DNA from: a virus
DNA length: 24,061 nucleotides
Strand: one strand, 5' to 3'
Virus record (IMG/VR): IMGVR_UViG_3300024429_000032
Coordinates: 1 to 24,061 of that record
The notes below the pieces were generated by a model that had not been told where the DNA came from, searched no databases, and saw only the letters and a list, made by a program, of their open reading frames with translations. A program made the position numbers and the translations under genes. Shown piece after piece: positions 2,243 to 20,258 of this stretch (the stretch's first letter is position 1; every line of letters begins with the position of its first letter).

Positions 2243-2366
2243 GGACTCCGCCGTAGGTTCTTTCTCCGGGTCGAGAATTGGCGTCGAGTCCTATAAATGT
2301 CCGAAATGCTCGAAGTTGGTTCAGAAGTTGATGTTTAATAAAAGACCTCTGGCAAGTATTTCGGAC
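2243..2366 (+). promoter_or_regulatory. Structured 5' leader with two successive stem-loops
   Basis: Stem 1 pairs GGACTCCGCC (2243-2252) with GGCG-tc-GAGTCC (2280-2291), ten pairs with a 2-base bulge, and would start about three bases from the transcript 5' end. Stem 2 pairs GTCCGAAATGCT (2299-2310) with AGTATTTCGGAC (2355-2366), twelve pairs including one G-U. The GNAT start codon at 2403 lies 36 bases after stem 2. A 13-codon reading frame (2297-2338) lies inside but has no good ribosome binding site. The leader may stabilise the mRNA or regulate expression; it matches no riboswitch class that I can recognise. Confidence 0.45.
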
Positions 2367-2402
2367 CTTGGAGATAACCGTGGGTTTCCCCGGAGAACGA
2401 TA

Positions 2403-2876
2403 ATGACTGATTTAGCCTTCCAGAAAACTCGCAGAGGCTTAAAACGAGCGATTAAATATGCTTCACACCACCGAAAACTGTCGATTCAAGTACGAACAGC
2501 CCTTCCCGGTCACATGGAACGAGTTAAACGACTCCAATGGGAAGTATTTCCAGAAGATTTACCAATTGAATTTAATGTTTCTCGTACAATAGTTGCTCTC
2601 AGAGGCAAGGAAATTGTAGGATTTGCCTATGCAACTGATCGTGGTTTTATTATTCGGTATGGTGTCGCACAGTACGAACGATTACAGGGCGTCGGGGAGC
2701 GAATGATCGGGGCTCTTGAGAATCAGATGCGAAATCTAGGGTATAAACGATTATTTACATATATTAAAGCATGGAACCCATCGTCTATTAACGTATTTAT
2801 TAAGTGTGATTGGCGGGCGTATTTGCCGGATTACGCCGAAGATCGAGATAGCGTGTTTTTTGAGATAAGGTTGTAG
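2403..2876 (+). CDS. GNAT-family N-acetyltransferase
   Basis: The protein (157 aa) transfers an acetyl group from acetyl-CoA to an unknown amine. The C-terminal two thirds has the GNAT order: a substrate-side helix (MERVKRLQWEVFPED), strands IVALRGKEIVGFAYA, the acetyl-CoA loop R-L-Q-G-V-G in the RxxGxG position followed by a long helix, and a closing N-x-x-S-x-N-V-F-x-K-C-x-W segment typical of the last helix-strand of the fold. The ATG at 2403 is chosen for its GGAGA site six bases upstream; the same frame is open further upstream to 2238 but has only a TTG at 2316 and an ATG at 2331 without good sites. It is the first gene after the 2205 promoter. Targets may be host proteins, tRNA or small molecules; none is indicated. 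Confidence 0.8.
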   Translation: MTDLAFQKTRRGLKRAIKYASHHRKLSIQVRTALPGHMERVKRLQWEVFPEDLPIEFNVSRTIVALRGKEIVGFAYATDRGFIIRYGVAQYERLQGVGERMIGALENQMRNLGYKRLFTYIKAWNPSSINVFIKCDWRAYLPDYAEDRDSVFFEIRL

Positions 2877-2881
2877 ACCTG

Positions 2882-3307
2882 ATGGATAAGGAAACGGCGG
2901 CACATCTTGAACGTGGAGTGCAAGAGGCTGTAAAACGAGGTCTAAAAGAAGCCGCTGAGGGTAATCTTACAGATGGTCCTGATTTAGATGCTGATGCAGC
3001 AGATTTAGCTTTAATTCGTATGCGAGAAGGTGAGTCGAATATTCCTTGGGAACAGGTTCTACGAGAACTTGGTTTGGAGGATTCTGATATGCCTAAACCA
3101 CAGCCATTGTGGGAAGCTTTTCGCCGGTTAGTAGATGCGATAAATCTCGTATCCTATGGGCCGTCGGGGAATAGGATTATATCGCGGCGAATAGATCGAA
3201 TGCGGAAAGAAATCGAGAAAGTTACAAAACAAATGACTGAATTGCGGGCTAATTGGTTTGAAAAGGTAATGAATTATATACGTAAGGATCACGACGATGA
3301 GTGTTGA
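2882..3307 (+). CDS. Hypothetical charged helical protein (141 aa)
   Basis: The N-terminal part is rich in Ala, Glu and Asp and predicted helical. Residues 54-65 (IPWEQVLRELGL) resemble a segment common in the C-terminal part of some RelB/RHH-type antitoxins, preceded by a helix (DLALIRMREGES) that also occurs there. Residues 75-135 are basic and coiled-coil-like (RRIDRMRKEIEKVTKQMTEL). It follows the GNAT gene by five bases and overlaps the next gene by 11. The antitoxin resemblance is from pattern recognition only and is limited to about 25 residues; the DNA-binding part of such antitoxins is not evident. A virion-associated or packaging accessory role is equally possible. Confidence 0.6.
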   Translation: MDKETAAHLERGVQEAVKRGLKEAAEGNLTDGPDLDADAADLALIRMREGESNIPWEQVLRELGLEDSDMPKPQPLWEAFRRLVDAINLVSYGPSGNRIISRRIDRMRKEIEKVTKQMTELRANWFEKVMNYIRKDHDDEC

Positions 3308-3761
3308 CGTAGAGATTACAACCCATTTGAAACTAACCGTGGGATCGACCGTCAAGGAGTATGGTGATTTGGCGACTCCTGTGACGTATACGATTACGAA
3401 CGGGCACGTTTTCGAGGTCCGGGCACAGTGCGACGACGACTATCTCGATGAAGTGCTTTGGACAACCGGTAACGGCAATATAGATACGTTTGAGTTGCTT
3501 TGGTTTAAGTCGGATGCGGATGTATTTCTGGAACTGCGGAATACTCAGGCGACCGATGAATTTATTTTGATCGAAGTGAAAGCAGACGTGCCGTTGATCC
3601 TTACGTCAGACGATATTGCTGGATTCGATACGGCAACACGGTTTGACGATGCTGTACTAGTAGAGGCAACCGATTTCGATCAGTGCGATCAGATCACAGT
3701 TCAGAATAACGCAGCGGATGCTGCCGGAGACGCTACTGTTCATTTGGTACTATTCAATTAA
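3297..3761 (+). CDS. Putative beta-rich virion accessory protein (154 aa)
   Basis: This acidic protein consists of alternating short hydrophobic strands and Asp/Asn/Thr-rich turns with hardly any helix, as in small beta-sandwich decoration or adhesin proteins of phages. Segments such as FELLWFKSDADVFLELRN and ITVQNNAADAAGD support this. There is no signal peptide or membrane segment. The ATG at 3297 has an AGGAT site upstream, placed inside the end of the preceding gene, which it overlaps by 11 bases in another frame. Its codons use more C- and G-ending triplets than the neighbouring small genes, similar to the capsid genes, which fits an abundant structural product. Function is inferred from composition and context only. 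Confidence 0.6.
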   Translation: MSVDVEITTHLKLTVGSTVKEYGDLATPVTYTITNGHVFEVRAQCDDDYLDEVLWTTGNGNIDTFELLWFKSDADVFLELRNTQATDEFILIEVKADVPLILTSDDIAGFDTATRFDDAVLVEATDFDQCDQITVQNNAADAAGDATVHLVLFN

Positions 3762-3773
3762 GGATAAAATATA

Positions 3774-3959
3774 ATGGCTGCTGAGGTAGTGGAAGTAAAA
3801 ATTAAGTCTGCAAATGGAGATTACGTGATCGAATCTACTAATCCTCCAGGTTGGCTGGATATGCTTAGGAAGTTTGCTGCACACGATCCATTATATCTCG
3901 GCATCGAGATTGGTCGGAATCTTGAGGATGGAATTCTCTTTAAATTTGAGGTTGACTAA
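3774..3959 (+). CDS. Hypothetical 61-aa protein
   Basis: A small mixed alpha/beta protein with an N-terminal strand-rich half (VVEVKIKSANGDYVIES) and a short helix (GWLDMLRKFAAHD). No family is recognised. AGGAT lies upstream of the ATG, and the stop overlaps the next start as TAATG, so the two are translationally coupled. It sits among probable virion accessory genes. Confidence 0.55.
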   Translation: MAAEVVEVKIKSANGDYVIESTNPPGWLDMLRKFAAHDPLYLGIEIGRNLEDGILFKFEVD

Positions 3960-4252
3960 TGCCAATATCTGCCGACATCCCCGATAGGTCAATTAAATCG
4001 TCGGGACATTTAAATAACCCTCTATCACAAGCTACGATAGCAGAACTATGGGGAGAATTGAGAAATCGTTTTTCCGCGTCGATATTTGTGTTTACTGCTC
4101 CCGCAAAGACTGGAGACGGACATGGATTTGGTTTCTTTTGTGGGGGATTGCAAACACATGCTTTGGGACTTTTAGATACGGCAGCAGCAGCTTTAAAAAG
4201 GGATTTAATCGGAGATGTGGAGTATGACGATGAGGATGATGATGAAGGATAA
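3959..4252 (+). CDS. Hypothetical 97-aa protein with acidic tail
   Basis: The centre holds a Gly-rich hydrophobic stretch (GDGHGFGFFCGGLQTHALGLL) between helices, and the last nine residues are almost all acidic (YDDEDDDEG). No family is recognised. It starts in a TAATG overlap with the preceding gene. The acidic tail is encoded by a GAT/GAG-rich stretch that in the next frame supplies a run of ATG codons for the lipoprotein gene, so the last part of this gene doubles as the start region of the next. Confidence 0.55.
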   Translation: MPISADIPDRSIKSSGHLNNPLSQATIAELWGELRNRFSASIFVFTAPAKTGDGHGFGFFCGGLQTHALGLLDTAAAALKRDLIGDVEYDDEDDDEG

Positions 4253-4871
4253 AATTCTCATTAGTATGTTATTGCTGTGTCTTGTGCTGTCTGGATGCAG
4301 TTTGGTCGGTGGGTTTATTCTCGATCAGGGCACACCTTCAATTTATAGCGGTATTCTACCTATCGAATGGATGGATACTGATGGTACAGGATTCGTTATA
4401 CGGGATGAAGGGGAGACGTATTTAGTTGTTACAGCGGCTCATGTTGTCGGGGATGAATCTCATGTATTTGTTGACGGCATTTTATCGCCGATTATAATAA
4501 TTGATTTTGATACAGATGTAGCTATTTTGCGGGTTGAGAAGTTTGAACATCGATGGAAGGTATGGAAGTTGGCGACAGCACGACAAGAGGAATCTGCAAA
4601 AGCTGTTGGATATACGTGGGTTAATGGTCCCGATGAACCGTTATTTTTGGTTTATCATGGTCGAGTCACTTCACTGGATTGGTGGGGATTTGTAAGTTTT
4701 GATGGGGGTATTTTTCCAGGTCTGTCTGGTGGACCGCTTTTGAATCGACATGGACAAGTAATTGGAGTATGTTCGCAATTTGGGGCCGCACGAGGATTGC
4801 CGTTTGAAACAGCGGGGCTTTTCGCTCCGTCTTTTGATATAGAAACTTTATTGGCAATGATTGGAGAATAA
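4242..4871 (+). CDS. Trypsin-fold (HtrA-like) serine protease lipoprotein
   Basis: The 209-aa protein starts with a lipoprotein signal: KDK, a hydrophobic core and lipobox LSGC with Cys19. Ser20 follows, which in Gram-negatives would send it to the outer membrane. The mature part carries a complete trypsin-like triad in HtrA spacing: His67 in TAAHVV, Asp92 in DTDVAIL and Ser162 in GLSGGP. There is no PDZ domain and it is short. In-frame ATGs occur at 4215, 4224, 4230, 4236, 4239 and 4242; 4242 is chosen because a GAGG lies six bases upstream and it leaves a standard signal peptide. A periplasmic lipoprotein cannot be a prohead protease, so a role in altering the host envelope, such as superinfection exclusion or fitness during lysogeny, is a guess from its location. 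Confidence 0.85.
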   Translation: MKDKILISMLLLCLVLSGCSLVGGFILDQGTPSIYSGILPIEWMDTDGTGFVIRDEGETYLVVTAAHVVGDESHVFVDGILSPIIIIDFDTDVAILRVEKFEHRWKVWKLATARQEESAKAVGYTWVNGPDEPLFLVYHGRVTSLDWWGFVSFDGGIFPGLSGGPLLNRHGQVIGVCSQFGAARGLPFETAGLFAPSFDIETLLAMIGE

Positions 4872-4872
4872 G

Positions 4873-5250
4873 ATGAGTGTAGGCGAACCTATTCATGGTG
4901 AACGAGTTATTGATGGTGCAGCCAATACTGCAACGGCATTAACATTATTTAAATCGGGTGATTTTGATGTAGATGGTAATGCAGTTGAACGAGAATTGGC
5001 ATCAAATGAATATCTGAATATTACCGATGTTGTGATTATCGACGAGGAAGCAGTAGATGTAATGTTAGTGGCGGATGCTGCGGCAGCCGGTAAATATATT
5101 ATCTTTACGAAGTCGGTTATCGGTATCCCCATTGTAGTTAATTTTCGTAGACCTTATGTTTGCCCAAAGGGCGTTGTACCTAAGTTCACAGGTGGATCGG
5201 GTGCTGCGGCTCGTTCGATGTGCGTGATCCAGGGATTTATTACAAAATAG
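4873..5250 (+). CDS. Putative beta-rich virion protein (125 aa)
   Basis: After a short N-terminal arm, the protein has alternating strands (NITDVVIIDEEAVDVMLVAD, KYIIFTKSVIGIPIVVNF) and ends with a Gly-rich loop and a last strand (SMCVIQGFITK), a layout common in small phage beta-sandwich virion proteins. No signal peptide is present. The ATG at 4873 has GGAGA at good spacing, formed by the end of the protease gene. It directly precedes the terminase genes by one base from the small subunit gene. The virion assignment is inferred from fold-like composition and neighbours. Confidence 0.55.
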   Translation: MSVGEPIHGERVIDGAANTATALTLFKSGDFDVDGNAVERELASNEYLNITDVVIIDEEAVDVMLVADAAAAGKYIIFTKSVIGIPIVVNFRRPYVCPKGVVPKFTGGSGAAARSMCVIQGFITK

Positions 5251-5251
5251 A

Positions 5252-5677
5252 ATGGCCCAAAAGAAGAAAAAATTTAAGTTTAATACTCGGCAATTAACTC
5301 AGCATTTACGGGAGTTAGCGGTCGAGTCTGAAACTATGACGGATGCTGGAGTTATTATCACTAAAAGTGAAGCTCTCGCTCAGTTGTTATGGAAGAAAGC
5401 TTTAGGGTGGAAAGAAACTAATAAAGAAACAGGGGAGGTAATTACCTATAAACCAGAAGCATGGGCAATTCAAATGATTTATGAGCGAATGGAGGGTAAA
5501 GCTCCAATTGCTCTTATTGATGAGAAACAGCAATTAACAGCGGCGGAAAAAATCAGTGACCTTGCCAGAACAAAACTTAATAAGCAAGCCCGAACTATCG
5601 TTGCCGTTTCCAAAGAAGATCAGTCTGTGGACCTGTCCCATAACGGGTCTACAAGTTCCGAAAGACCCGATTCTTAA
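5252..5677 (+). CDS. Putative small terminase subunit
   Basis: The basic N-terminus (AQKKKKFKF) is followed by helices and a segment (SEALAQLLWKKALGWKETN) and AWAIQMIYERMEGKAP. This order, in which a residue-choosing helix pair is followed by a W-x-x-M/L-Y-E-R-x-E-G-K-x-P stretch, is typical of phage proteins encoded just before TerL that recognise DNA for packaging. No helix-turn-helix is obvious by eye. The last third is Ser/Gln/Lys-rich and probably disordered. Its final 122 bases overlap the open frame of TerL. The call rests mainly on position and the motif; moderately sure. Confidence 0.55.
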   Translation: MAQKKKKFKFNTRQLTQHLRELAVESETMTDAGVIITKSEALAQLLWKKALGWKETNKETGEVITYKPEAWAIQMIYERMEGKAPIALIDEKQQLTAAEKISDLARTKLNKQARTIVAVSKEDQSVDLSHNGSTSSERPDS

Positions 5678-7502
5678 TCTTCAATGGCGGTCTGATATTT
5701 TGCAAGCGGCTGAAACGGATACGGAGTTACAACAGGTATTGTATACTGCATGTAGTCAGTCTATCTTGTATTGGATCAATACTTTTATGTTCACATATCG
5801 ACTTTTTCTTACGGGGTCTAACGGTGTAACACGACAATGTACATCAGAAGAAGCTCATACACCTTTTGTTACATGGGATATTCAGAATAAACATATTCTT
5901 AGAATTGAACAGGCAATAACGAAAGGGTTTGAGTTACTGACTGATAAATCGAGGGATATGGGGGCAACTTGGGATCATATCGCAACTATTCATCATCAGT
6001 GGTTATTTAGGTCTGATCGAAGTTTTCTAGAGATTAGCCGAAAAGAAGATTGTGTAGATACTATTGGAAAAACAGGGGAAGTAAGTTCCGATCCGGGTAC
6101 ATTGTTTGGGAAACACGATTATATAAATAGATGGCTTCCTAAATGGATGCTTCCGCCGTATGATCGAAAACGACTTCATTTGATAAATCTTTTAAATCAA
6201 AGTCGTATTGATGGTGAATCTTCAAATGCAGCGGCGGGATCGTCTGATCGACGTACCGCTATTATGTTGGATGAAATGGCTTTAATGGCAGAAGGTGAGG
6301 GGATTAAGCGTTCGACTCGGGACGTAACTGCTTGCCGTTTGCCGAACTCAACTCCTGCTGGACCGGGAACAGCGTATTCGAAATGGCGGCAATCGGGGCA
6401 GATTGAGGTATTTGTACTCCCGTGGTGGGAACATCCCGAAAAGGGCTTTAAACGATATGTAATGCAGAAAGATGTTGTTAATGAATGGTTAATTCGATCT
6501 CCTTGGTATCACGTTGAAGAAAAAAAGCGTACACCAAAGGAGATGGCAATCAATATTGATATGGACCATATTGGTTCTGGTGAGACATTCTTTGAAGCAT
6601 ATAATATTGAACGACATCGACATCTATATGCTCGTCCGTCTCTGAGTCGTTGGACAGTCGATTTCCGACCGGAAGTTACGACAGGAGCAATACCACGTAT
6701 TCTCGCTAAGTCACAACGGTCATTTGTACAAGCTCAATTAAATACAAAAGGGCCGTGGCATATTTGGTGTAAGCTAGTAAATGGACGGTTGGACCAATCA
6801 AAAAATTATATCTTTGGGATAGATATAAGTAAAGGGCAGGGAGCTTCAAACTCAATTATTACTATAATGTGTGTTGAAACGCGGGAGATTGTTGCTGAGT
6901 TTGTGGACGCGAATACGCCTCCGTATGAATTGGCCCGGATTGCTTGTGCGGCTGCATTGTGGGTAGGTGGGGCTCGGCGAAATGGTCGAGTTTTTATGAT
7001 ATGGGAAGCAAATGGACCGGGATGGGATTTCGGGCGACAAGTAGTTCATATCTATAAATATCCATTTTATTTTGTCGATCATTCTACAGGTGTTGTTACA
7101 GAAAAGAAGGGTAAGAAATACGGGTGGCATTCTTCGCGTGAAAAGAAGGGTGAAGCTCTTGGAATGTTACGGCGAGCTTTTGCTCACGGTGGTATTCTCA
7201 CACATGATGAACAATGTTTGGAAGAAGCTCTTTCATATATCCATTACGATGGTGGTGGTATCGGTCCAGCAGAATTGATGGTCGAAAGTGCGGAAGCGAG
7301 AAAGTGTCATGGTGATCGAGTAATTGGTCATATGTTGTGTTTATATGCAGTGGGAGAAGTTCCAAAAGCAAAGTTGGAGAAACCTAAAGCTCCACACCGT
7401 TCTATGGCTTATCGACGAGAGCAAGTGATGAAAAAACTAAGGCAAGAAAAACGTAATCGTCGGTTAAAGAAATCATTTAACTTTAAGACGGGAGACTATT
7501 GA
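5556..7502 (+). CDS. terL: Terminase large subunit (ATPase-nuclease)
   Basis: TerL pumps DNA into the prohead using ATP and cuts the concatemer. The ATPase domain shows a deviant Walker A KSRDMGATW (residues 131-139) and Walker B AIMLDE (235-240, with D239 and catalytic E240). The RNase H-like nuclease follows with D423 in GIDISKGQG, E484 in WEANGPG and D587 in HGDRVIGHM. The length of 648 aa is normal to slightly long for the family. The start is uncertain: GTG at 5556 overlaps the small subunit gene by 122 bases, and only TTG codons (5562, 5595 area, 5700) are alternatives; no in-frame ATG exists before the conserved core. The gene ends in a TGATG overlap with the portal gene. Confidence 0.93.
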   Translation: MTLPEQNLISKPELSLPFPKKISLWTCPITGLQVPKDPILNLQWRSDILQAAETDTELQQVLYTACSQSILYWINTFMFTYRLFLTGSNGVTRQCTSEEAHTPFVTWDIQNKHILRIEQAITKGFELLTDKSRDMGATWDHIATIHHQWLFRSDRSFLEISRKEDCVDTIGKTGEVSSDPGTLFGKHDYINRWLPKWMLPPYDRKRLHLINLLNQSRIDGESSNAAAGSSDRRTAIMLDEMALMAEGEGIKRSTRDVTACRLPNSTPAGPGTAYSKWRQSGQIEVFVLPWWEHPEKGFKRYVMQKDVVNEWLIRSPWYHVEEKKRTPKEMAINIDMDHIGSGETFFEAYNIERHRHLYARPSLSRWTVDFRPEVTTGAIPRILAKSQRSFVQAQLNTKGPWHIWCKLVNGRLDQSKNYIFGIDISKGQGASNSIITIMCVETREIVAEFVDANTPPYELARIACAAALWVGGARRNGRVFMIWEANGPGWDFGRQVVHIYKYPFYFVDHSTGVVTEKKGKKYGWHSSREKKGEALGMLRRAFAHGGILTHDEQCLEEALSYIHYDGGGIGPAELMVESAEARKCHGDRVIGHMLCLYAVGEVPKAKLEKPKAPHRSMAYRREQVMKKLRQEKRNRRLKKSFNFKTGDY

Positions 7503-9361
7503 TGCCTGTCAATTTGACCGTAAAAAAGATGCACGAGGCAGTTCGGCTTGGTTTTCGACGAATGGAAAACTTTCGTAATGCTCGATTGATGTTTCTCCGT
7601 AATTTTGTTGGTCAGTATTATGATAAGTATCGTGGTTCTGTAGGGACGGAGCCGATGAATCTTATCTTTAACGCAATTCGTATTCTCGTACCGAATCTTG
7701 TAATGTCGCCTCCACAGCATGTCGTTAGAAGTCGTTTTGTACTTTATCGGGAATATGGTGAACTACTTGGGATGGCTCTCGATTATAACGCAAAGGATCA
7801 GCGGCTTCGAGATACTTTGCGACGATGGATCATTGATTCACTATTTTGTATGGGTATTTTAAAAACAGGTTTATGTGAATCAAGTCAAGCAATTTGTTTC
7901 GACGATTCAGATGAAATTGATCCAGGTGAAATCTATACCGAAATAGTTGACCTAGATAATTTTACATTTGATCCATCTACTTTGAATTCGATGAAAGAAG
8001 CAGCTTGGATCGGCGATAAAATTAGAGTGCCTCGACAACAACTTCTTGATTCCGGTCGCTATCGAAATGATCTTGTGGAACAACTTGCGATAGCCGGGAC
8101 GGATTTTAATGATGGCTCTGAAAAACTATCAGCTAAAAATCTACCTGGTAACGAAATCAATGAAATCCATGATTATGTGGATATTGTGGAAATCTGGGTG
8201 CCTGGGGCTAATGCCCTAGTAACGCTTCCGGCGTCGGATCAGTCATTTGATGATTACCTACGGATAGCAGATTATAGGGGACCAAAAGAAGGTCCGTATA
8301 CATTTTTACAACTTACGCCGCCAGTGCCCGGAAATCCAGTTCCAATTTCCGCAGTAGGTATTTGGAATGATATTCATGTTCGAGCAAATCAAATGGCGAC
8401 AAAGATTATAACTCAGGCCGAGTCACAAAAAAGTGTTCTTGGCTACAAACGTGGGTCGGCTGACGATGCTCAGGAGATTTTGGATGCTGAGGATGGTAGT
8501 TATATAGGTTTAGATAATCCCGGTGAAGCTAAAATGCTTGATTTTGGTGGACAGCAACGATCAAATGAAGCCCATCTTCAACAGTTGATGATGTGGTTTA
8601 ATATGATGTCAGGTAATACTGAGGCATTGGGTGGATTTCGTGAACAATCAGCAACAGCTACACAGGCTCAGATGCTTCAAATGAATCAGGCGATTGGTAT
8701 CCAGGATTGGAAGGAATTGGTTTATGAGGGAGTTGCTGAGGAAGCCGGTAAACGAGCTTGGTATTTGCATACCGATCCGCTGATTGAGGTACCTTTAATT
8801 AGACGACGACAAAAATCGGCTAAAACAATTCAGGGGGAAGATGGACAGTCGTATTTTGAACCTGCGGAGATAGTGGAAGAACAGGTTATTTTGACGCCGG
8901 AGATGCGTCGTGGAGATTTCCTCGATTTCCATTTTGAAATTCAACCGAAGTCGATGGGTCGTCTTGATCCGCAAATGCGGTTACAACGAGCTATGGAATT
9001 TGCGATTAAACTTGTACCGGCGGCTGCTACGGCGGCTCAAATTTGTATGCAGATGGGTATTGCTTTTAGTTTCCCGAGATTCCTCATTCGTATGGCCAAA
9101 GAAGCCGGTATCGAATGGATGGATGAGGTTTTCTTTGACCCCGATTTCCAAATGCAGATGGCGGAAATGATGATGAAAGCTCCAGCGTTTCAGGGTTCAC
9201 AATCGGAGGGTAGAAATGCAGGTTCGCCGGGAGCTATACAACAGAATGGTCAACCAGCTAATGTAGCTCAGGTACAAGGTATAACACCGAACTTAAATAA
9301 AACTGCTCAGACTGGGGCAAATGCTGGTCAATCGAATTTAATGAATAATGAGAGGTATTGA
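7502..9361 (+). CDS. Portal protein
   Basis: The portal forms the dodecameric ring at the capsid vertex through which DNA passes and to which TerL docks. The 619-aa protein lies right after TerL, has the podovirus portal look: an N-terminal helical region with R-N-F/F-V-G-Q-Y-Y and P-x-N-L-x-x-N-A-I-R, a long helix after residue 300 (RANQMATKIITQ), a G-F-R-E-Q-S-A-T-A-T-Q region near residues 376-386, and a helical C-terminal barrel-like segment ending in a Gln/Asn/Gly-rich tail. The ATG at 7502 overlaps the TerL stop (TGATG); a TTG one codon earlier is less likely. No catalytic site is expected. Confidence 0.88.
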   Translation: MPVNLTVKKMHEAVRLGFRRMENFRNARLMFLRNFVGQYYDKYRGSVGTEPMNLIFNAIRILVPNLVMSPPQHVVRSRFVLYREYGELLGMALDYNAKDQRLRDTLRRWIIDSLFCMGILKTGLCESSQAICFDDSDEIDPGEIYTEIVDLDNFTFDPSTLNSMKEAAWIGDKIRVPRQQLLDSGRYRNDLVEQLAIAGTDFNDGSEKLSAKNLPGNEINEIHDYVDIVEIWVPGANALVTLPASDQSFDDYLRIADYRGPKEGPYTFLQLTPPVPGNPVPISAVGIWNDIHVRANQMATKIITQAESQKSVLGYKRGSADDAQEILDAEDGSYIGLDNPGEAKMLDFGGQQRSNEAHLQQLMMWFNMMSGNTEALGGFREQSATATQAQMLQMNQAIGIQDWKELVYEGVAEEAGKRAWYLHTDPLIEVPLIRRRQKSAKTIQGEDGQSYFEPAEIVEEQVILTPEMRRGDFLDFHFEIQPKSMGRLDPQMRLQRAMEFAIKLVPAAATAAQICMQMGIAFSFPRFLIRMAKEAGIEWMDEVFFDPDFQMQMAEMMMKAPAFQGSQSEGRNAGSPGAIQQNGQPANVAQVQGITPNLNKTAQTGANAGQSNLMNNERY

Positions 9362-11164: not shown

Positions 11165-12268
11165 ATGGGTGTTAATAATGATGCTTTGAAAGACCTGATT
11201 GCCACTACCCTAAAAGACCTGTCGCAAGGGCAGTTTGAGGTTATGTGGGATCATCAGGCATATGAGTTTTGTGCCATTTATCAGGCAAAGCGGCGTAAGG
11301 TAGATGGCGGAACGTCTATTGAACGAAACGTTGTTCTTGATGAATCTGGTGCGGCTCACTATCGTAAATTGTACGATACGGATACGCCGACCGTTGAGAA
11401 CATTCATAATAAGATTGATGTTCCGTGGTGTCAGCTTGGTACTGATTATTCTTGGGACGTGCTGGAAATCAAGCGTAACAAGAATAACGCCAAGGGATAT
11501 ATCGACTTGATGGAAACTCGTCGAATGGATGCCCTGTGGAGTTGGGCAAATAAGCTGGAAGATCGTGGTTGGAAAACTCCCACGAGTGCAAGCGATGTTT
11601 TGTATCCCTATGGTATTCCGTATTACCTGAACTATATTACAGCCGGTTCTACAACTGGTGGTTTTGTGGGTCAGACGATTCGTTACCAAGATGGTTCGAA
11701 GGGAACTAAATGTGCGGACCTTGAGGCTTCTACGAATCCAAAGTGGCGTAGTTATGCCGATATTTACGTGAAGATCGATAACGGTCTTTTGCGTACAATG
11801 CGAAAGGCATTCCTGCTTACACGATTCCGTCCACCGGCATTTGTTAATTCACCGGGTAACGATGAGCGTGGGGCTGGTAGTCGATTGTATGTTGGTGCTG
11901 ATACTGCTGTCGAGTTGATGGACCTCGCGGATAAGCGGGACGATAATAGCGGTCCCCGTGATCTGGCCGGAAAGGCTCTGATTGATGTGGCGGGTGTCAC
12001 TTACTTCAACCGTGTTCCAATTGTTTATATTCCACAGCTTGACGAAGCAGGTGATGCAGCTAATTACGATCCTATCTTCTATGTGGATTGGTCGAAGTTG
12101 CAACCTATCACTCAGGAAGGGTATTGGATGGAGGAATCTACTCCTATGACCGACCGTTTGCAGCATACGACTTATACGGTTTATCTCGACGGCTGCCACA
12201 ATCATCTTTGTGTGAACCGGAGAACTACGGGGTTCAATATTCACAAGGCTATCCCAAGTGGTTCATAG
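11165..12268 (+). CDS. Major capsid protein
   Basis: The 367-aa protein follows the scaffold by 29 bases and is of the size expected for an HK97-fold capsid subunit. Features typical of podovirus capsid proteins include an early long helix, a charged loop (IYQAKRRKVDGGTSIERNV), an aromatic strand region with W-S-W-A-N-K-L-E-D near the middle, R-F-R-P-P-A-F followed by a strand (SRLYVGADTAVELMDLADKR), and a C-terminal segment with repeated strands. The gene prefers C- and G-ending codons more than its neighbours, as expected for the most abundant virion protein. GGGAG lies upstream of the ATG. No protease-cleaved delta domain is obvious. Confidence 0.85.
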   Translation: MGVNNDALKDLIATTLKDLSQGQFEVMWDHQAYEFCAIYQAKRRKVDGGTSIERNVVLDESGAAHYRKLYDTDTPTVENIHNKIDVPWCQLGTDYSWDVLEIKRNKNNAKGYIDLMETRRMDALWSWANKLEDRGWKTPTSASDVLYPYGIPYYLNYITAGSTTGGFVGQTIRYQDGSKGTKCADLEASTNPKWRSYADIYVKIDNGLLRTMRKAFLLTRFRPPAFVNSPGNDERGAGSRLYVGADTAVELMDLADKRDDNSGPRDLAGKALIDVAGVTYFNRVPIVYIPQLDEAGDAANYDPIFYVDWSKLQPITQEGYWMEESTPMTDRLQHTTYTVYLDGCHNHLCVNRRTTGFNIHKAIPSGS

Positions 12269-12278
12269 GTAAGGACTT

Positions 12279-12722
12279 ATGAAAACTAAGACGTGTACAA
12301 AATGTAGTCGAGAACTTTCGCTCTCTGAATTTTATATAGAGAAAAATCGTTCTGGAAAGAAAATTCGTCGTGGTGCTTGTAAAGAATGTGAGCGAAAGCG
12401 TTGTATAAAATGGCGTCGGAAAAACCCCGAAAGAAATCGAACGATTTGCCGGAATAGTAATCTCAAACGTCACTATGGGCTTACAGTTGAAAAATACGAT
12501 CAAATGCTTACGGCTCAAAATGGCGGGTGTGCAGCTTGTGGCGGTCAAAATGTTGCGGGCCGTCGTCTTGCTGTAGATCATAACCATGAGACTGGTGAGG
12601 TTCGTGGGTTATTGTGTCACCATTGCAATGCTGCAATCGGACACGTCGAAGAAAGCGTAAGTCGTTTGTTACAGCTTATTGCATACGTTGAAAAATTCAA
12701 AGAGATTCGAGGAGAAATATGA
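12279..12722 (+). CDS. HNH endonuclease, endonuclease VII-like
   Basis: This 147-aa protein is a free-standing DNA endonuclease. An N-terminal zinc knuckle (C6, C9, C34, C37) precedes basic linkers, then YGLTVEKYDQML, the knuckle C84/C87, the catalytic LAVDHNHETG (D100, H101, N102, H103), and the second pair C113/C116 in LLCHHCN with the family Asn. This order fits the recombination endonuclease VII type. It sits ten bases behind the capsid gene and its TGA overlaps the next gene's ATG, between two structural genes with no repair genes near it, which suggests a homing intruder that has been neatly fitted into the operon. Its A/T-ending codons differ from the capsid gene. A packaging-associated HNH role is less likely because it is not next to TerL. 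Confidence 0.9.
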   Translation: MKTKTCTKCSRELSLSEFYIEKNRSGKKIRRGACKECERKRCIKWRRKNPERNRTICRNSNLKRHYGLTVEKYDQMLTAQNGGCAACGGQNVAGRRLAVDHNHETGEVRGLLCHHCNAAIGHVEESVSRLLQLIAYVEKFKEIRGEI

Positions 12723-15204: not shown

Positions 15205-17718
15205 GTGCCCAAAAAGCAACCTATAGAGATACCGTACCCTTTTCTGGGTATAGATGAGAATTGGGCATACCGGGGCCAGCCGAAAGGCACAACCCCGGAT
15301 GCTTTAAACGCACGTCCCTATGATAGTATCGATAACCGACTTCGTGGAGGGCAAAGAGATGGGCTGTCGAAATATCTAGATGATGCCGTGAATGGTACAT
15401 ATTTTATCCAAGCCATTACGCAAGCTACAACGGTAAGTTCCGATCTCATTATAGCCGATGCGTCTCTTGGATTTGAGACATTTACCTACGCAGATGGTTG
15501 GTTGGGTACTGAGGCTAGTGCGGTTTGGGATACCTATGAAGAAACAGGGATAGGGGCTGGTGGTCACGGTTCAAATGCCGTACCGTTTGATACCGATGAT
15601 ATACCGTCTACAACTTACCCCGTTGTTGGGGATAATAAATTAGATGGTGTACAGGGGATAGCACATTTAATCAGTGCAGCAATTCATAAGACTGTTATTG
15701 CTCCCGGTACTAATTACGTTATTCGATGTAAATTTAAGTTGAATGCGGCAGACTATGGGGATGGAAATCATAGCCGCCCACGAGTTCAGATTCTTTTTCG
15801 GGTAGTAACTGACCGATCTTCTGGTCTTGGTGGTCAAGCATATGGGTGTTTATCAGTTGAAAAATATGAGAATGAGAAACATTACATTGTTTTAAGAGCG
15901 GGAGCAGAAACCGCATCAAGTCTACAATTAACAGTTACAAATGGATATACTGATGCTTGGTGGTTGTTAGAACATACATTAGAGCTTCGTGTCGCTGGTG
16001 ATACAATGTGGGGGTTTATCGACGGTAAATTACTCGTTGGCCCACATACATCGACCAACAATAATACACAAACTAATTGGGGTATTTGTCTCGGGGACGG
16101 AAGTGCGACAGGAACGACAATCTATATCGACGACGTGCGAATAAGTGAGGGGGTCGTTCCACCGACTTTACGTGCCGTCCATCTTGTAGTAGTTTCAGGC
16201 GGCGATATCTTTTCGGGGGATCGGAATGAGGGATTAGCGATTGCGACTTCGGGGGATGATGTTTTAAGTGCGACACGGAAACCAATCGGAGTTCAGGAAG
16301 CATTCAATAAATGCTATTTTTGTGACGGTTTGGGGGCAGATTATACCATACTTGAACCCGTGGCAAATACCGCCTCAAGTTGGGAAGCCACGGCGGGAGC
16401 CCTTCCGGCGGGCGGAACAGGAACTACGTATGCGATTACGGCGGTAGATACTGCGGCTAAAACTTTCACAGTAGCCGAAGATTTATCTGCTTTGTCGGAT
16501 GGCGACTATATCGAAGTTCGTGGTTCTACTGGAAATGACGGATCATATACAGTTGCTTCGGATGCCGGTAGTGGGCCAACAGTTATTACCGTGGACAATA
16601 CGATTCCCGATGCCACGGTTGATGGGAATATACTTGTAGCTTTAAAGGGTTGTCGTATAATTACCCTCTATCGTGGCCGTATTGTAATGGCTGGATTAGA
16701 GAGCGATCCCCATAACTGGTTTATGTCAGCTTCGGGTGATCCCCTCGATTGGGATTACTTCCCGGCTACAGATTCACAGACAATGGCCGTTGCTGGAAAT
16801 ATCGCAGATACAGGAAAGTTAGGGGATGTTATTACAGCCCTTGCCCCGTATAGCGATGATTTATTGATTATTGGTTGCGATCATACACTGTGGGTTATGC
16901 GGGGTGATCCCGCAGCCGGGGGCGTTATCGACAATGTTAGTTATCAAACAGGGATCGCAGGACAGGAAGCATTTACTTGGGATACGGACGGTAATTTCTA
17001 TTTCTTTGGGGCGGGGACGTTATGGAGAATGGCCGCAGGGGTAGTCTCTACACCCGAGCCTCTGAGCCGGAATAAACTAGATAATACTTTCGGAGCGATT
17101 AACTACGGAACACACGAAATTCGTCTGTTGTGGGATAATGCCCATAAAGGTATTCATCTGTATTTCACGCCGGTAAATCAGCCCGCAGCATCTCCCTCGC
17201 ATTATTTCTGGGATTTACGTACCAACAGTTTTTGGCGGGATGAATACCCTGTAGCCTACGGTCCTACTGCTGTTCATGTATTTGATGCCGATGATCCGGG
17301 AGATCGGGCGGCGTTAATTGGCGGATTCGATTCGTATATTCGTTTTCTGGACGACGATTCATCGGACGATGATGGAACAGTTATAGCTAGTTATGTGTAT
17401 TTTACGCCTATCATGGCGGCCGGTAATTTGGCTAATTTCCGGCTGATTGAGATAACGCCAATTCTTTCGGCTGATTCCGATCCCGTCACTTTAAAGGTTT
17501 ATGCAGGTAAAACAGCAGAGCAGGCAATCGAATCTACTACGCCGAGGTTTACTCGTGAGCTTCAAGCCGGTCGTAATCCTTCTATACGTAATCGAGTAAA
17601 TGGTAATGCTATGATTTGTAGGCTGGAAAATAGTTCATCTACAGCCCGTACATGGGCGTTTGAGAGCATGACCGGAATAATTGAACCAAGCGGTAAGACT
17701 CGGCATGGGGGGCTATAA
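15205..17718 (+). CDS. Tail nozzle (stem) protein with inserted LamG-like domain
   Basis: The nozzle forms the tail tube end below the adaptor. The 837-aa protein begins with a conserved stem-type segment: residues 32-54 with N-A-R-P-Y-D and R-L-R-G-G-Q-R-D-G-L. Residues about 85-316 look like a LamG/concanavalin-fold domain, with C-K-F-K-L-N and L-R-V-A-G-D-T-M-W-G-F-I-D-G-K strands ending in a D-D-V-R-I-S-E-G edge; this could bind sugar. A short beta insert (about 390-470) follows, then a repeated-strand region (about 475-830) with W-V-M-R-G-D-P, F-F-G-A-G-T-L-W and W-D-L-R-T-N-S-F-W-R repeats typical of the beta-propeller of gp12-like nozzles. The start is GTG at 15205 with an AGGG site upstream. 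It ends in a TAATG overlap with the fibre gene. Confidence 0.8.
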   Translation: MPKKQPIEIPYPFLGIDENWAYRGQPKGTTPDALNARPYDSIDNRLRGGQRDGLSKYLDDAVNGTYFIQAITQATTVSSDLIIADASLGFETFTYADGWLGTEASAVWDTYEETGIGAGGHGSNAVPFDTDDIPSTTYPVVGDNKLDGVQGIAHLISAAIHKTVIAPGTNYVIRCKFKLNAADYGDGNHSRPRVQILFRVVTDRSSGLGGQAYGCLSVEKYENEKHYIVLRAGAETASSLQLTVTNGYTDAWWLLEHTLELRVAGDTMWGFIDGKLLVGPHTSTNNNTQTNWGICLGDGSATGTTIYIDDVRISEGVVPPTLRAVHLVVVSGGDIFSGDRNEGLAIATSGDDVLSATRKPIGVQEAFNKCYFCDGLGADYTILEPVANTASSWEATAGALPAGGTGTTYAITAVDTAAKTFTVAEDLSALSDGDYIEVRGSTGNDGSYTVASDAGSGPTVITVDNTIPDATVDGNILVALKGCRIITLYRGRIVMAGLESDPHNWFMSASGDPLDWDYFPATDSQTMAVAGNIADTGKLGDVITALAPYSDDLLIIGCDHTLWVMRGDPAAGGVIDNVSYQTGIAGQEAFTWDTDGNFYFFGAGTLWRMAAGVVSTPEPLSRNKLDNTFGAINYGTHEIRLLWDNAHKGIHLYFTPVNQPAASPSHYFWDLRTNSFWRDEYPVAYGPTAVHVFDADDPGDRAALIGGFDSYIRFLDDDSSDDDGTVIASYVYFTPIMAAGNLANFRLIEITPILSADSDPVTLKVYAGKTAEQAIESTTPRFTRELQAGRNPSIRNRVNGNAMICRLENSSSTARTWAFESMTGIIEPSGKTRHGGL

Positions 17719-20258
17719 TGTCTCCTAATCCACAAAGAACAGGACAAACTCCGCGAGCCGATCCTCGTGCCCGGCGTAATGCTCAGCATCTTGCGGCTGA
17801 TAAGCTTTTGGATATGGATATCCGTACTATGAATGTAGCAATTTACGACTCTGCATATAGTATCGGAGGTTTTGTTGTACTTCATGCAGGTGGGGGAAGT
17901 GGAAATACGTGTCTTGGAATAAATGCCGGTGCAGCTTTAACAACTGGTACATGGAATATGTTACTTGGTTGGTCGGCTGGTCAGGTAATGACAACCGGAT
18001 ACGATAATATATGTATTGGTCCGAGTGCAGGGGTAGCACTTACTGTCGGTTTTAGAAATGTACTGATCGGAAAAGAAGCCGGTAAAACACTTATCGGTGA
18101 TGCCGGAGATGTGACTATCGGCGATCAAAATACTTTTATTGGGTATTATGCTGGTCGTGTTGCAACTAAGTCTTATAATACTGCAATTGGTCCTTCGGCT
18201 TGTCAATATATGACCACAGGTACAAAAGATACCTATATTGGACATTTAGCGGGGGGTGATGGGGCCGCTGGTGCATTAACCGACGGTATAGAAAATACAT
18301 ATATCGGAGCAAATTCGGGTCGATATAATATCAGTAATGACCGCTGTACGGGTATCGGTTATTTTACGGGTGCGAGTAGTGGGGCTGCGGATAATCTCCA
18401 AGGTTCTGTAGCTATCGGGGCTACTGCGACTTTTACTGCGAGTAATCAACTGGTAATCGGTGGGGCCGGAGCAAACTATCGAATTACTGATGTTTATGTC
18501 GGCGATGGCGTAGTTGCGGCTTCCCCGCAAGATGTAACGATTAACCCTACCGGGGGATCAGGTACAGATACCGAGGCAAAGGATTTAATCCTTGCGGGCG
18601 GTAAATCTACTGGTGATGCAGCACCCGGCGATATTTTGTTTAAAACCGCAACTGCCGGGGCTTCAGGGAGTAGCCTTCAAAGTCTTACAACTCGACTGAC
18701 TATTACGGGTGTGACGGCTGATTTTGCTAGTCTTAATCTGACAACTACCGGTAGCTTTACGGCAGGAACACTAACAGTTGCCGATGGTGCGATCTCTGAT
18801 TCTGATGGAACTATAGCTATCGGAACGGGGGGCGGTGCTACTACATTAAATCTAATTGATAATAAAGTATATTTAACTCGGGGGGATTTGGTTTTATCCG
18901 GGGCTGATACGTCAATTACTGCACCTGCGATAAATGGCACTACAATAGTTGCGGTAACTTCGGTAACAACGCCTAATTTTACTGCCGCGAGTAACGCCGG
19001 TTTATTGATAATTAACTACGGCAGTAATTATGATATTACATTTTCATTCAGCGACGGCGGGGTAACTAAAACATTTGTGATTGACGCCTCAGAAAACACA
19101 TTGAATTTAAATACGGGTCATTTATTGACGACAGGTACGGGCTCATTTAAAAATATAGGGATCGAAACTACTACAACTCCTGTAACTACAAAAACCAATA
19201 TGTATATGTCGTCAAATACCCTGAGATTTGAGGGGTATGATGCAAGAGACGGTGGGCAGACTGTTGGATTTGAAGTAGATTTCGATCACACTGATGGAAT
19301 TGGCCCGACACTACGGGGTACTACTACAGTAGATGCATATAATAGGCTGTTTATAGATGGTTCCTTAATCTTCCTTAACGATCAATTTATGACTTTTGGT
19401 TCCGGTTCCCGTTTTCAAATGCTATGGGCCACGACGAATAATGACTATATGATGTTTAAAATAAATGTGGGAAACGCCGCTTACTCAGGTAATCTTGTTT
19501 TCGCGGATCGAGCAAATTTACCGGCAGAAAATTATCCGATAGTTTCTCATCCCACTTTTAGGATTCAATCATCTTCTGGGACGCTCGCAGATTATATTCA
19601 GTTTTATCACGATGGAGCAAGTGCAGTTATTACTTCCGGGGCCGGGGGATTGTCTCTAGCTGCTGCTACTACTATTGGTGACGGCGGTGCGACTAATTAC
19701 ACAGAGATAAAATCAGATGGAGAAATCAATCTCCACGGTACGGCGAGAGTAGTAAATTCCTTGTGGATAGGGGCTGAGGGAGTTAGAGCCCCGCCTACTA
19801 CAAAACCGGCAACTTATGTAGAACATGGTATAGGTGGTGCATGGGAATTTTCCGATGCTACTGATGATACTATCCTTGCAACAATGCGAATACCCAACAG
19901 AATGGATAGGGGTGTTGCTCCGTCTATAACACTAGGATGGAGTTCCACAACCACAGAAGGTTATTGCGAGTGGCAAATAGAATATCTATGGCGGGCTGCG
20001 GATGAAGCTACAGATGCGGTTGCTGATGATACATTACTCAGTAGTACAGATGCAGATGCTTCTACTTCAAGTGCTGTTGCTAATGGATTAACATTAAGTA
20101 CATTTCCATTGGTTGTCCCTAGTGCGACCGATGCTTGTTTACATTTGAGAATAAAAAGACGGGCCGATCTAGCGGCAGATACAATAAATGGAGATACGGT
20201 AGAGCTTTTTGGTATGTGTTTGACTTCTACTTCTAATAAATTAGGGGCAGCTACGTAG
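17718..20258 (+). CDS. Tail fibre with YadA-head-like beta-roll repeats
   Basis: This 846-aa protein is the probable host-recognition fibre. An N-terminal basic attachment part (residues 1-50) is followed by nine copies of an N-T-x-I-G-x-x-A-G unit at residues 63, 80, 97, 114, 138, 154, 171, 193 and 210; the first four are spaced exactly 17 residues, as in left-handed beta-rolls of YadA-type heads. A repetitive Thr/Gly/Ala/Asp-rich shaft follows (about 250-480), then a mixed region, and a C-terminal beta-sandwich (about 700-846) with W-E-F-S-D-A-T-D-D, W-Q-I-E-Y-L-W and C-L-H-L-R-I-K-R. No S74 intramolecular chaperone motif is seen. Trimerisation is likely but is inferred. Confidence 0.8.
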   Translation: MSPNPQRTGQTPRADPRARRNAQHLAADKLLDMDIRTMNVAIYDSAYSIGGFVVLHAGGGSGNTCLGINAGAALTTGTWNMLLGWSAGQVMTTGYDNICIGPSAGVALTVGFRNVLIGKEAGKTLIGDAGDVTIGDQNTFIGYYAGRVATKSYNTAIGPSACQYMTTGTKDTYIGHLAGGDGAAGALTDGIENTYIGANSGRYNISNDRCTGIGYFTGASSGAADNLQGSVAIGATATFTASNQLVIGGAGANYRITDVYVGDGVVAASPQDVTINPTGGSGTDTEAKDLILAGGKSTGDAAPGDILFKTATAGASGSSLQSLTTRLTITGVTADFASLNLTTTGSFTAGTLTVADGAISDSDGTIAIGTGGGATTLNLIDNKVYLTRGDLVLSGADTSITAPAINGTTIVAVTSVTTPNFTAASNAGLLIINYGSNYDITFSFSDGGVTKTFVIDASENTLNLNTGHLLTTGTGSFKNIGIETTTTPVTTKTNMYMSSNTLRFEGYDARDGGQTVGFEVDFDHTDGIGPTLRGTTTVDAYNRLFIDGSLIFLNDQFMTFGSGSRFQMLWATTNNDYMMFKINVGNAAYSGNLVFADRANLPAENYPIVSHPTFRIQSSSGTLADYIQFYHDGASAVITSGAGGLSLAAATTIGDGGATNYTEIKSDGEINLHGTARVVNSLWIGAEGVRAPPTTKPATYVEHGIGGAWEFSDATDDTILATMRIPNRMDRGVAPSITLGWSSTTTEGYCEWQIEYLWRAADEATDAVADDTLLSSTDADASTSSAVANGLTLSTFPLVVPSATDACLHLRIKRRADLAADTINGDTVELFGMCLTSTSNKLGAAT

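What the first reader, a model, noticed from the sequence alone, without database searches (positions are those of the whole stretch)
4242..4871. Phage-encoded HtrA-like serine protease lipoprotein
A complete His-Asp-Ser triad follows a textbook lipoprotein signal, within the structural operon. Known prohead proteases are of other types and do not carry lipobox signals, so this enzyme would act in the host envelope. A protease anchored at the outer membrane could block further infection or modify surface proteins.
Basis: partly seen in the sequence, partly recalled or inferred. Interest (0 to 1): 0.66.

Follow-up and report, generated by a model that had tools for sequence, protein, structure and literature searches.

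The report
Phage lipoprotein protease beside terminase genes
A bacterial virus carries, just before its DNA-packaging genes, a protein-cutting enzyme built to be fixed to the host's outer layers; distant relatives keep such an enzyme in the same spot, and one branch seems to have swapped it for a different kind, so cutting something in the host's surface is probably part of how these viruses work.

Summary
Window 4242-4871 (+) encodes a 209-aa protein with a lipoprotein signal (lipobox LSGC, Cys19) and a trypsin-fold domain with intact triad His67/Asp92/Ser162. The predicted fold matches the catalytic domains of DegS, HtrA1 and Deg2 (Z about 19). It has no PDZ domain, so it is HtrA-like in its catalytic domain, not an HtrA protein. 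It lies directly before TerS-TerL-portal.

It is not a lone oddity. Fourteen of 57 distinct related terminase lineages carry such a protease upstream of TerL. Members with complete N-termini are all membrane-anchored or exported; only two (window, L098) have a lipobox. Unrelated cultured Vibrio phages encode lipoprotein versions; Rhizobium and Sulfitobacter phages encode membrane-anchored or secreted ones. I found no experiment on any of them.

New: in one large clade of the same phages the slot instead holds another exported or lipoprotein family with invariant HG and C motifs, whose predicted fold weakly resembles caspases (Z about 5). No locus has both. The slot thus looks like a place for an envelope-tethered peptidase.

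Best mechanism: late envelope proteolysis, most likely of surface proteins (superinfection block, progeny release). The envelope protease is well supported; the purpose is inferred.

The parts
4242..4871 (+). Trypsin-like serine protease with lipoprotein signal, 209 aa (an alternative in-frame start at 4230 is equally plausible)
4242..4298 (+). Lipoprotein signal peptide; lipobox LSGC at 4287-4298, predicted lipidated Cys19 at 4296-4298, Ser at +2
   Evidence: sequence
4440..4442 (+). Catalytic His67 codon (TAAHVV)
   Evidence: invariant column
4515..4517 (+). Catalytic Asp92 codon (DTDVAIL)
   Evidence: invariant column
4725..4727 (+). Catalytic Ser162 codon (GLSGGP)
   Evidence: invariant column
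3297..3761 (+). Small protein of unknown function; a homologue stands immediately before the protease in L016
   Evidence: sequence comparison by eye
3959..4252 (+). 97-aa protein of unknown function whose stop overlaps the protease start by 11 nt (translational coupling likely)
4873..5250 (+). Small protein with a GEPIHGE motif; homologue follows the protease in L016, and several relatives carry such genes before TerS
5252..5677 (+). Terminase small subunit-like gene (the relatives' version forms cluster 11, directly before TerL)
5556..7502 (+). Terminase large subunit (ORF start over-extended)
7499..9361 (+). Portal protein
11165..12268 (+). Major capsid protein

Best explanation
The gene makes a trypsin-fold endoprotease that is exported, lipidated on Cys19 and held at the host membrane with its catalytic domain in the periplasm or at the cell surface. 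It is probably made late, with the packaging and head proteins, because it overlaps or abuts its neighbours directly ahead of TerS-TerL-portal. Its most likely task is to cut host envelope or surface proteins, for example the receptor or proteins linked to it, so that the producing cell and its debris stop binding phage. That would be an enzymatic counterpart of the receptor-blocking lipoprotein Llp of T5. Shown by sequence and model: lipoprotein signal, fold, conserved triad, position, and conservation of the slot across divergent relatives. Inferred: lipidation, activity, late timing, substrate and benefit.
For: Fold and triad. Export: lipobox in the window and in L098; a hydrophobic N-terminus in all 12 family members with a readable N-terminus. 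Position: same strand, just upstream of TerS/TerL, in 14 of 57 dereplicated terminase lineages, with the same flanking genes in L016. Constraint: triad columns invariant at 21-29% identity; dN/dS about 0.20 between L041 and L044, with dS close to saturation. Long inheritance: the window protease groups with six other proteases of these phages, 96/97 support. Precedent in unrelated phages: 9 Vibrio phage homologues examined are all lipoprotein-like, so tethering recurs. The slot in a sister clade carries another exported or lipoprotein family with peptidase-like motifs. T5/BF23 Llp shows that a phage lipoprotein can exclude superinfection and is presumed to reduce loss on debris (PMC4728585).
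Against: No experiment on any member was found; host and substrate are unknown. Forty-three of 57 lineages lack this protease in the sequence at hand, so it is not essential to the group (some are contig ends, and 17 carry the HG protein instead). Most relatives have a transmembrane anchor, which would leave the enzyme at the inner membrane, far from surface receptors. Vibrio phages carry their version among replication or early genes, which does not fit late timing there. L097 has lost the Asp region.
Confidence: 0.4

Rival explanations
1. Envelope quality control: the protease clears or processes misfolded exported proteins, or triggers or dampens the host stress response like DegS, to keep the envelope working while the phage grows.
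For: Closest solved relatives are DegS/DegP/HtrA catalytic domains. Four relatives carry an SPFH/band-7 protein near the protease: directly behind it in L042, within about 1.5 kb in L041, L044 and L127. Cellular SPFH proteins organise membrane proteases (established knowledge of HflKC-FtsH). L042 and L038 also carry a Cpn10-like protein nearby.
Against: No PDZ domain, the part by which DegS and DegP sense stress. The SPFH and Cpn10 genes belong to one clade and are absent near the window. Lipid anchoring is not a DegS trait.
Confidence: 0.2
2. Lysis or egress helper: the protease weakens the envelope at lysis, for example by cutting proteins that link outer membrane and wall, acting with or in place of spanins.
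For: Position before TerS, a frequent place of lysis genes (established knowledge, T7 and lambda). In Sulfitobacter phage pCB2047-C the protease directly follows endolysin, holin and two small membrane genes; in Rhizobium phage RHph_TM3_3_14B it lies five genes downstream of a lysozyme.
Against: No endolysin, holin or spanin was recognised beside the protease in the window or its near relatives. Rhizobium phage 16-3 and the Vibrio phages carry theirs elsewhere.
Confidence: 0.2
3. Virion-linked function: the protease is packaged or displayed on the particle, or processes head proteins, as a prohead or entry protease.
For: It lies among small genes of unknown function near packaging and head genes; no other prohead protease was recognised in the window.
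Against: Every readable relative has an export or membrane signal, at odds with cytoplasmic capsid assembly; no match to prohead protease families; it lies upstream of TerS, not between portal and capsid protein.
Confidence: 0.08
4. Passive moron: a captured host protease gene without a specific role in infection.
For: Patchy presence (14 of 57 lineages) and internal deletion in L097.
Against: The triad is kept at about 25% identity, the position is kept, and dN/dS is about 0.2 for one pair.
Confidence: 0.07

Closest known systems
HtrA/Deg proteases (DegS, DegP, HtrA1; MEROPS S1C)
   Same: Trypsin double-barrel catalytic domain and triad, Z 18-19.6; periplasmic side; DegS is also membrane-anchored
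   Different: No PDZ domain; 209 aa; lipid anchor; curated HtrA/DegP/DegS models score far under cut-off (41.8 against 416.2 bits for TIGR02037)
Vibrio phage lipoprotein serine proteases (150E35-1, LP.1, Va1, pVco-7 and others)
   Same: Phage-encoded, about 200-220 aa, lipobox, trypsin-like motifs, no PDZ
   Different: A separate clade in the protease tree (100/100), in unrelated phages and mostly outside packaging genes. A single origin of all lipoprotein versions is not rejected (AU p 0.18)
Membrane-anchored or secreted trypsin-like proteases of Rhizobium phages (16-3 p036, RHph_TM3_3_14B) and Sulfitobacter phage pCB2047-C
   Same: Phage-encoded PDZ-less trypsin-like enzymes with export signals
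   Different: Transmembrane anchor or type I signal instead of lipobox; other genome positions
T5/BF23 Llp receptor-blocking lipoprotein
   Same: Phage lipoprotein in the host envelope; model for the proposed benefit (PMC4728585)
   Different: Llp blocks its receptor by binding and is not a protease; a functional analogy only
HG family in the sister terminase clade (this work)
   Same: Exported or lipoprotein, same slot upstream of TerS/TerL
   Different: Different fold; HG and Cys motifs, weakly caspase-like

Membership tests
Trypsin_2 (PF13365) / chymotrypsin-fold serine peptidase | Profile match above curated cut-off | tested here: met
   62 bits against 27.6, E 1.4e-16
Trypsin_2 (PF13365) / chymotrypsin-fold serine peptidase | His-Asp-Ser triad with GxSGGP | tested here: met
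   H67, D92, S162 invariant in the 7-row alignment
Trypsin_2 (PF13365) / chymotrypsin-fold serine peptidase | Double-barrel fold | tested here: met
   AlphaFold core pLDDT about 90; Z 18-19.6 to HtrA/Deg catalytic domains
HtrA/Deg family | C-terminal PDZ domain | tested here: not met
   The protein ends after the catalytic domain; no PDZ match in Pfam
HtrA/Deg family | Curated HtrA/DegP/DegS model above cut-off | tested here: not met
   TIGR02037 41.8 against 416.2 bits; TIGR02038 13.3 against 423
HtrA/Deg family | Trimer or higher oligomer | not testable with these tools
   no complex prediction available
Bacterial lipoprotein (Lgt/Lsp substrate) | Positively charged n-region, hydrophobic core, lipobox with Cys | tested here: met
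   MKDK-ILISMLLLCLV-LSGC
Bacterial lipoprotein (Lgt/Lsp substrate) | Lipidation in the host | not testable with these tools
   needs an experiment
Prohead protease | Match to a prohead protease family | tested here: not met
   Pfam and PHROGs show only trypsin-like or unnamed families
Prohead protease | Place between portal and capsid protein | tested here: not met
   it lies upstream of TerS
Superinfection-exclusion proteins (Llp-like) | Expression lowers plating of the same phage | not testable with these tools
   host unknown
Clan CD cysteine peptidases (for the HG family in relatives) | Hydrophobic strand then His-Gly, and hydrophobic strand then Cys | tested here: met
   H61, G62 and C102 invariant in 19 sequences
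Clan CD cysteine peptidases (for the HG family in relatives) | Caspase-like fold | tested here: inconclusive
   Foldseek best hits Dronc and MALT1 at E 0.03; most VIA rows are caspases, MALT1 or CHAT, but Z only about 5

The most novel reading that the evidence does not exclude
A group of uncultured phages keeps a dedicated slot just before the terminase genes for an envelope-tethered peptidase. The slot holds a trypsin-fold serine enzyme in some lineages and an unrelated, probably caspase-like cysteine enzyme in a sister clade (in L099 a lipoprotein with a zinc-protease motif HELGH). If so, envelope proteolysis is a conserved step of their infection cycle served by interchangeable enzymes, a class of phage function not yet described.
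Probability: 0.3. Interest if true: 0.75.

Novelty: new variant of a known kind. Interest (0 to 1): 0.55.

Why it matters
Phage enzymes known to act on the host envelope mainly degrade sugars or cell wall; tethered proteases in the envelope of infected cells have no established role that I found. If the enzyme cuts surface proteins it would be an enzymatic way to block superinfection or free progeny. The recurrence in cultured Vibrio, Rhizobium and Sulfitobacter phages makes this directly testable. The predicted caspase-like replacement would also be a new family of phage peptidases.

Tried and rejected
Single-protein search of viral contigs with the protease found no relative, and the 7-row alignment was too diverse for a pattern search; capsid and terminase searches worked instead. 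The fecal record MT835589 is an unrelated HtrA-type protein with a PDZ-like extension on a probably bacterial contig, left out. Several 'phage' hits annotated DegS/DegQ/Do look like bacterial contigs in the collection, not used. Prohead protease: rejected. A lysis cassette beside the protease: none recognised in the window or near relatives. The chance value for mutual exclusion (hypergeometric 0.003) is not relied on, because the tree shows the HG family confined to one clade, so the swap may be a single event. PDB sequence search with the HG profile found no relative. Host by terminase in genomes: only MAG contigs of phage size (Planctomycetia, Neptuniibacter, Phycisphaerales), which may be mis-binned, so the host is left open. 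Promoter scan gave no more sites than chance. Literature searches found no study of phage lipoprotein trypsin-like proteases.

Full report
What is there. The ORF at 4242-4871 on the + strand encodes 209 residues. It starts MKDKILISMLLLCLVLSGC, a textbook type II signal peptide with lipobox LSGC, and continues after a linker of about 25 residues into a trypsin-like domain (PF13365, E 1.4e-16, 62 bits against a cut-off of 27.6). His67, Asp92 and Ser162 are the triad. Starts at 4230 and 4242 both have GAG-type ribosome sites at fair spacing, and both lie before the lipobox. Only 9 of 2,560 ORFs in the comparison set show a lipobox behind a hydrophobic stretch. The structure model (mean pLDDT 78, core about 90) matches HtrA/Deg catalytic domains, best Deg2 19.6, HtrA1 19.5 and DegS 19.2 on the DALI-like scale. 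A family profile finds Thermotoga HtrA at 4e-40 over the whole catalytic domain. There is no PDZ domain, and curated HtrA models are far below their cut-offs, so the protein is not filed as an HtrA protein.

Where it sits. The window is a linear virus record of 24,061 bases, probably a fragment. The protease start overlaps the stop of a 97-aa gene (3959-4252), and its stop is followed one base later by a small gene (4873-5250), then by TerS-like, TerL, portal and, further on, major capsid protein. This packing suggests co-expression with late genes; that is an inference, and a promoter scan gave no more sites than chance.

Relatives. Capsid, portal and terminase searches brought in related viral contigs. 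Iterated profile searches found the trypsin-like protease upstream of TerL in L016, L038, L041, L042, L044, L045, L050 (partial), L051, L063 (partial), L093, L097, L098 and L127 besides the window: 14 of 57 lineages after merging terminases at least 95% identical. In most the gap to TerL is 0.3-1.1 kb, with TerS between. L016 keeps the same neighbours as the window. Twelve members have a readable N-terminus, all with a hydrophobic segment, but only the window and L098 have a lipobox. The triad columns are invariant in the 7-row alignment at 21-29% identity to the window. L097 has lost about 60 residues including the Asp region. For L041 against L044 dN is 0.34 and dS 1.69, the latter near saturation.

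Proteases of this kind elsewhere. Nine homologues from cultured Vibrio phages of 44 to 349 kb were read; eight fit a strict lipobox and the ninth has LMGC. They sit in varied places, for example between SbcC-like and clamp loader genes. One of them (henriette 12B8) lacks the His. Rhizobium phages 16-3 and RHph_TM3_3_14B have membrane-anchored versions, and Sulfitobacter phage pCB2047-C has a secreted one right behind its endolysin and holin. In the protease tree the window falls with six proteases of its own phage group (96/97), apart from the Vibrio lipoproteins (100/100); one common lipoprotein clade is not rejected (AU p 0.18). So phage-encoded envelope proteases are an existing but uncharacterised kind; I found no experimental paper.

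A second family in the same slot. Twenty-five loci without the trypsin-like gene carry, in most cases 0.7-2.5 kb upstream of TerL, an exported or lipoprotein protein of about 155-200 aa with invariant Trp44, His61-Gly62, Trp69, Cys102, Pro125-Asp126 and Gly145 (numbering of L119). It has no Pfam or PHROG family and no match in cultured phages. Hydrophobic strand plus His-Gly, then hydrophobic strand plus Cys, is the pattern of clan CD cysteine peptidases (established knowledge). The model is confident (pLDDT 87.5). Foldseek ranks caspase Dronc and MALT1 first, but only at E 0.03, and most of the best 50 in the second look are caspases, MALT1 or CHAT with Z only 4.5-5.2. That is suggestive, not proof. 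None of the 57 lineages has both families, but on the terminase tree the HG family is confined to one 27-lineage clade and the trypsin-like gene to the rest. The exclusion may thus reflect a single replacement, and the chance value of 0.003 overstates it. L099 has yet another lipoprotein there, with HELGH.

Neighbours that may matter. Four relatives of one clade (L041, L042, L044, L127) carry an SPFH/band-7 protein near the protease, directly behind it in L042. L042 and L038 also have a Cpn10-like protein. This favours an envelope quality-control role for that clade, though shared descent is a simpler reason for the association.

How it most likely works. The evidence supports an exported, tethered, active serine protease (about 0.85). 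Purpose is inferred: cutting host surface or envelope proteins late in infection, so that the dying cell and its debris no longer capture phage, is the single most likely role (overall 0.4). It has a functional precedent in the T5 and BF23 Llp lipoproteins, which block receptors by binding (PMC4728585). Envelope quality control and lysis help are each about 0.2.

Limits. The host is unknown; terminase relatives in MAGs lie on phage-sized contigs. Absence of the gene in a lineage often rests on 2-4 kb of upstream sequence. Signal calls rest on hydropathy and a lipobox pattern, not on a trained predictor. Homology of the small flanking genes was judged by eye.

Noticed in passing
L104:5668-6162, L119:652-1116, L059:970-1461 and 22 further loci: Unnamed exported or lipoprotein family with invariant HG and C motifs, weakly caspase-like fold, in the slot upstream of TerS/TerL in a sister clade.
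   Followed up: partly
L041:1856-2383, L042:855-1397, L044:1008-1607, L127:4420-4962: Phage-encoded SPFH/band-7 proteins near the protease gene (PF01145, E 8e-19 to 1e-25 for the first three).
   Followed up: partly
L099:1035-1541: Lipoprotein with HELGH zinc-protease motif upstream of TerL (weak match to DUF1570).
   Followed up: partly
L042:2347-2667 and L038:1764-2075: Cpn10/GroES-like proteins upstream of the terminase genes.
   Followed up: partly
window 12279-12722: Endonuclease VII-like gene directly behind the capsid gene; similar genes are scattered through the relatives (cluster 10), as if mobile.
   Followed up: no
window 2316-2876: GNAT acetyltransferase at the head of the gene run; L016 has one too.
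   Followed up: no
window 4873-5250 and relatives (L090, L102, L002): Family of small proteins with a GDPIHGE-like motif, sometimes several copies before TerS; function unknown.
   Followed up: no
window 17718-20258: Tail-spike-like protein with repeated GxN motifs resembling adhesin head repeats.
   Followed up: no
L097:1370-1840: Protease with internal in-frame deletion removing the catalytic Asp region, probably inactive.
   Followed up: partly
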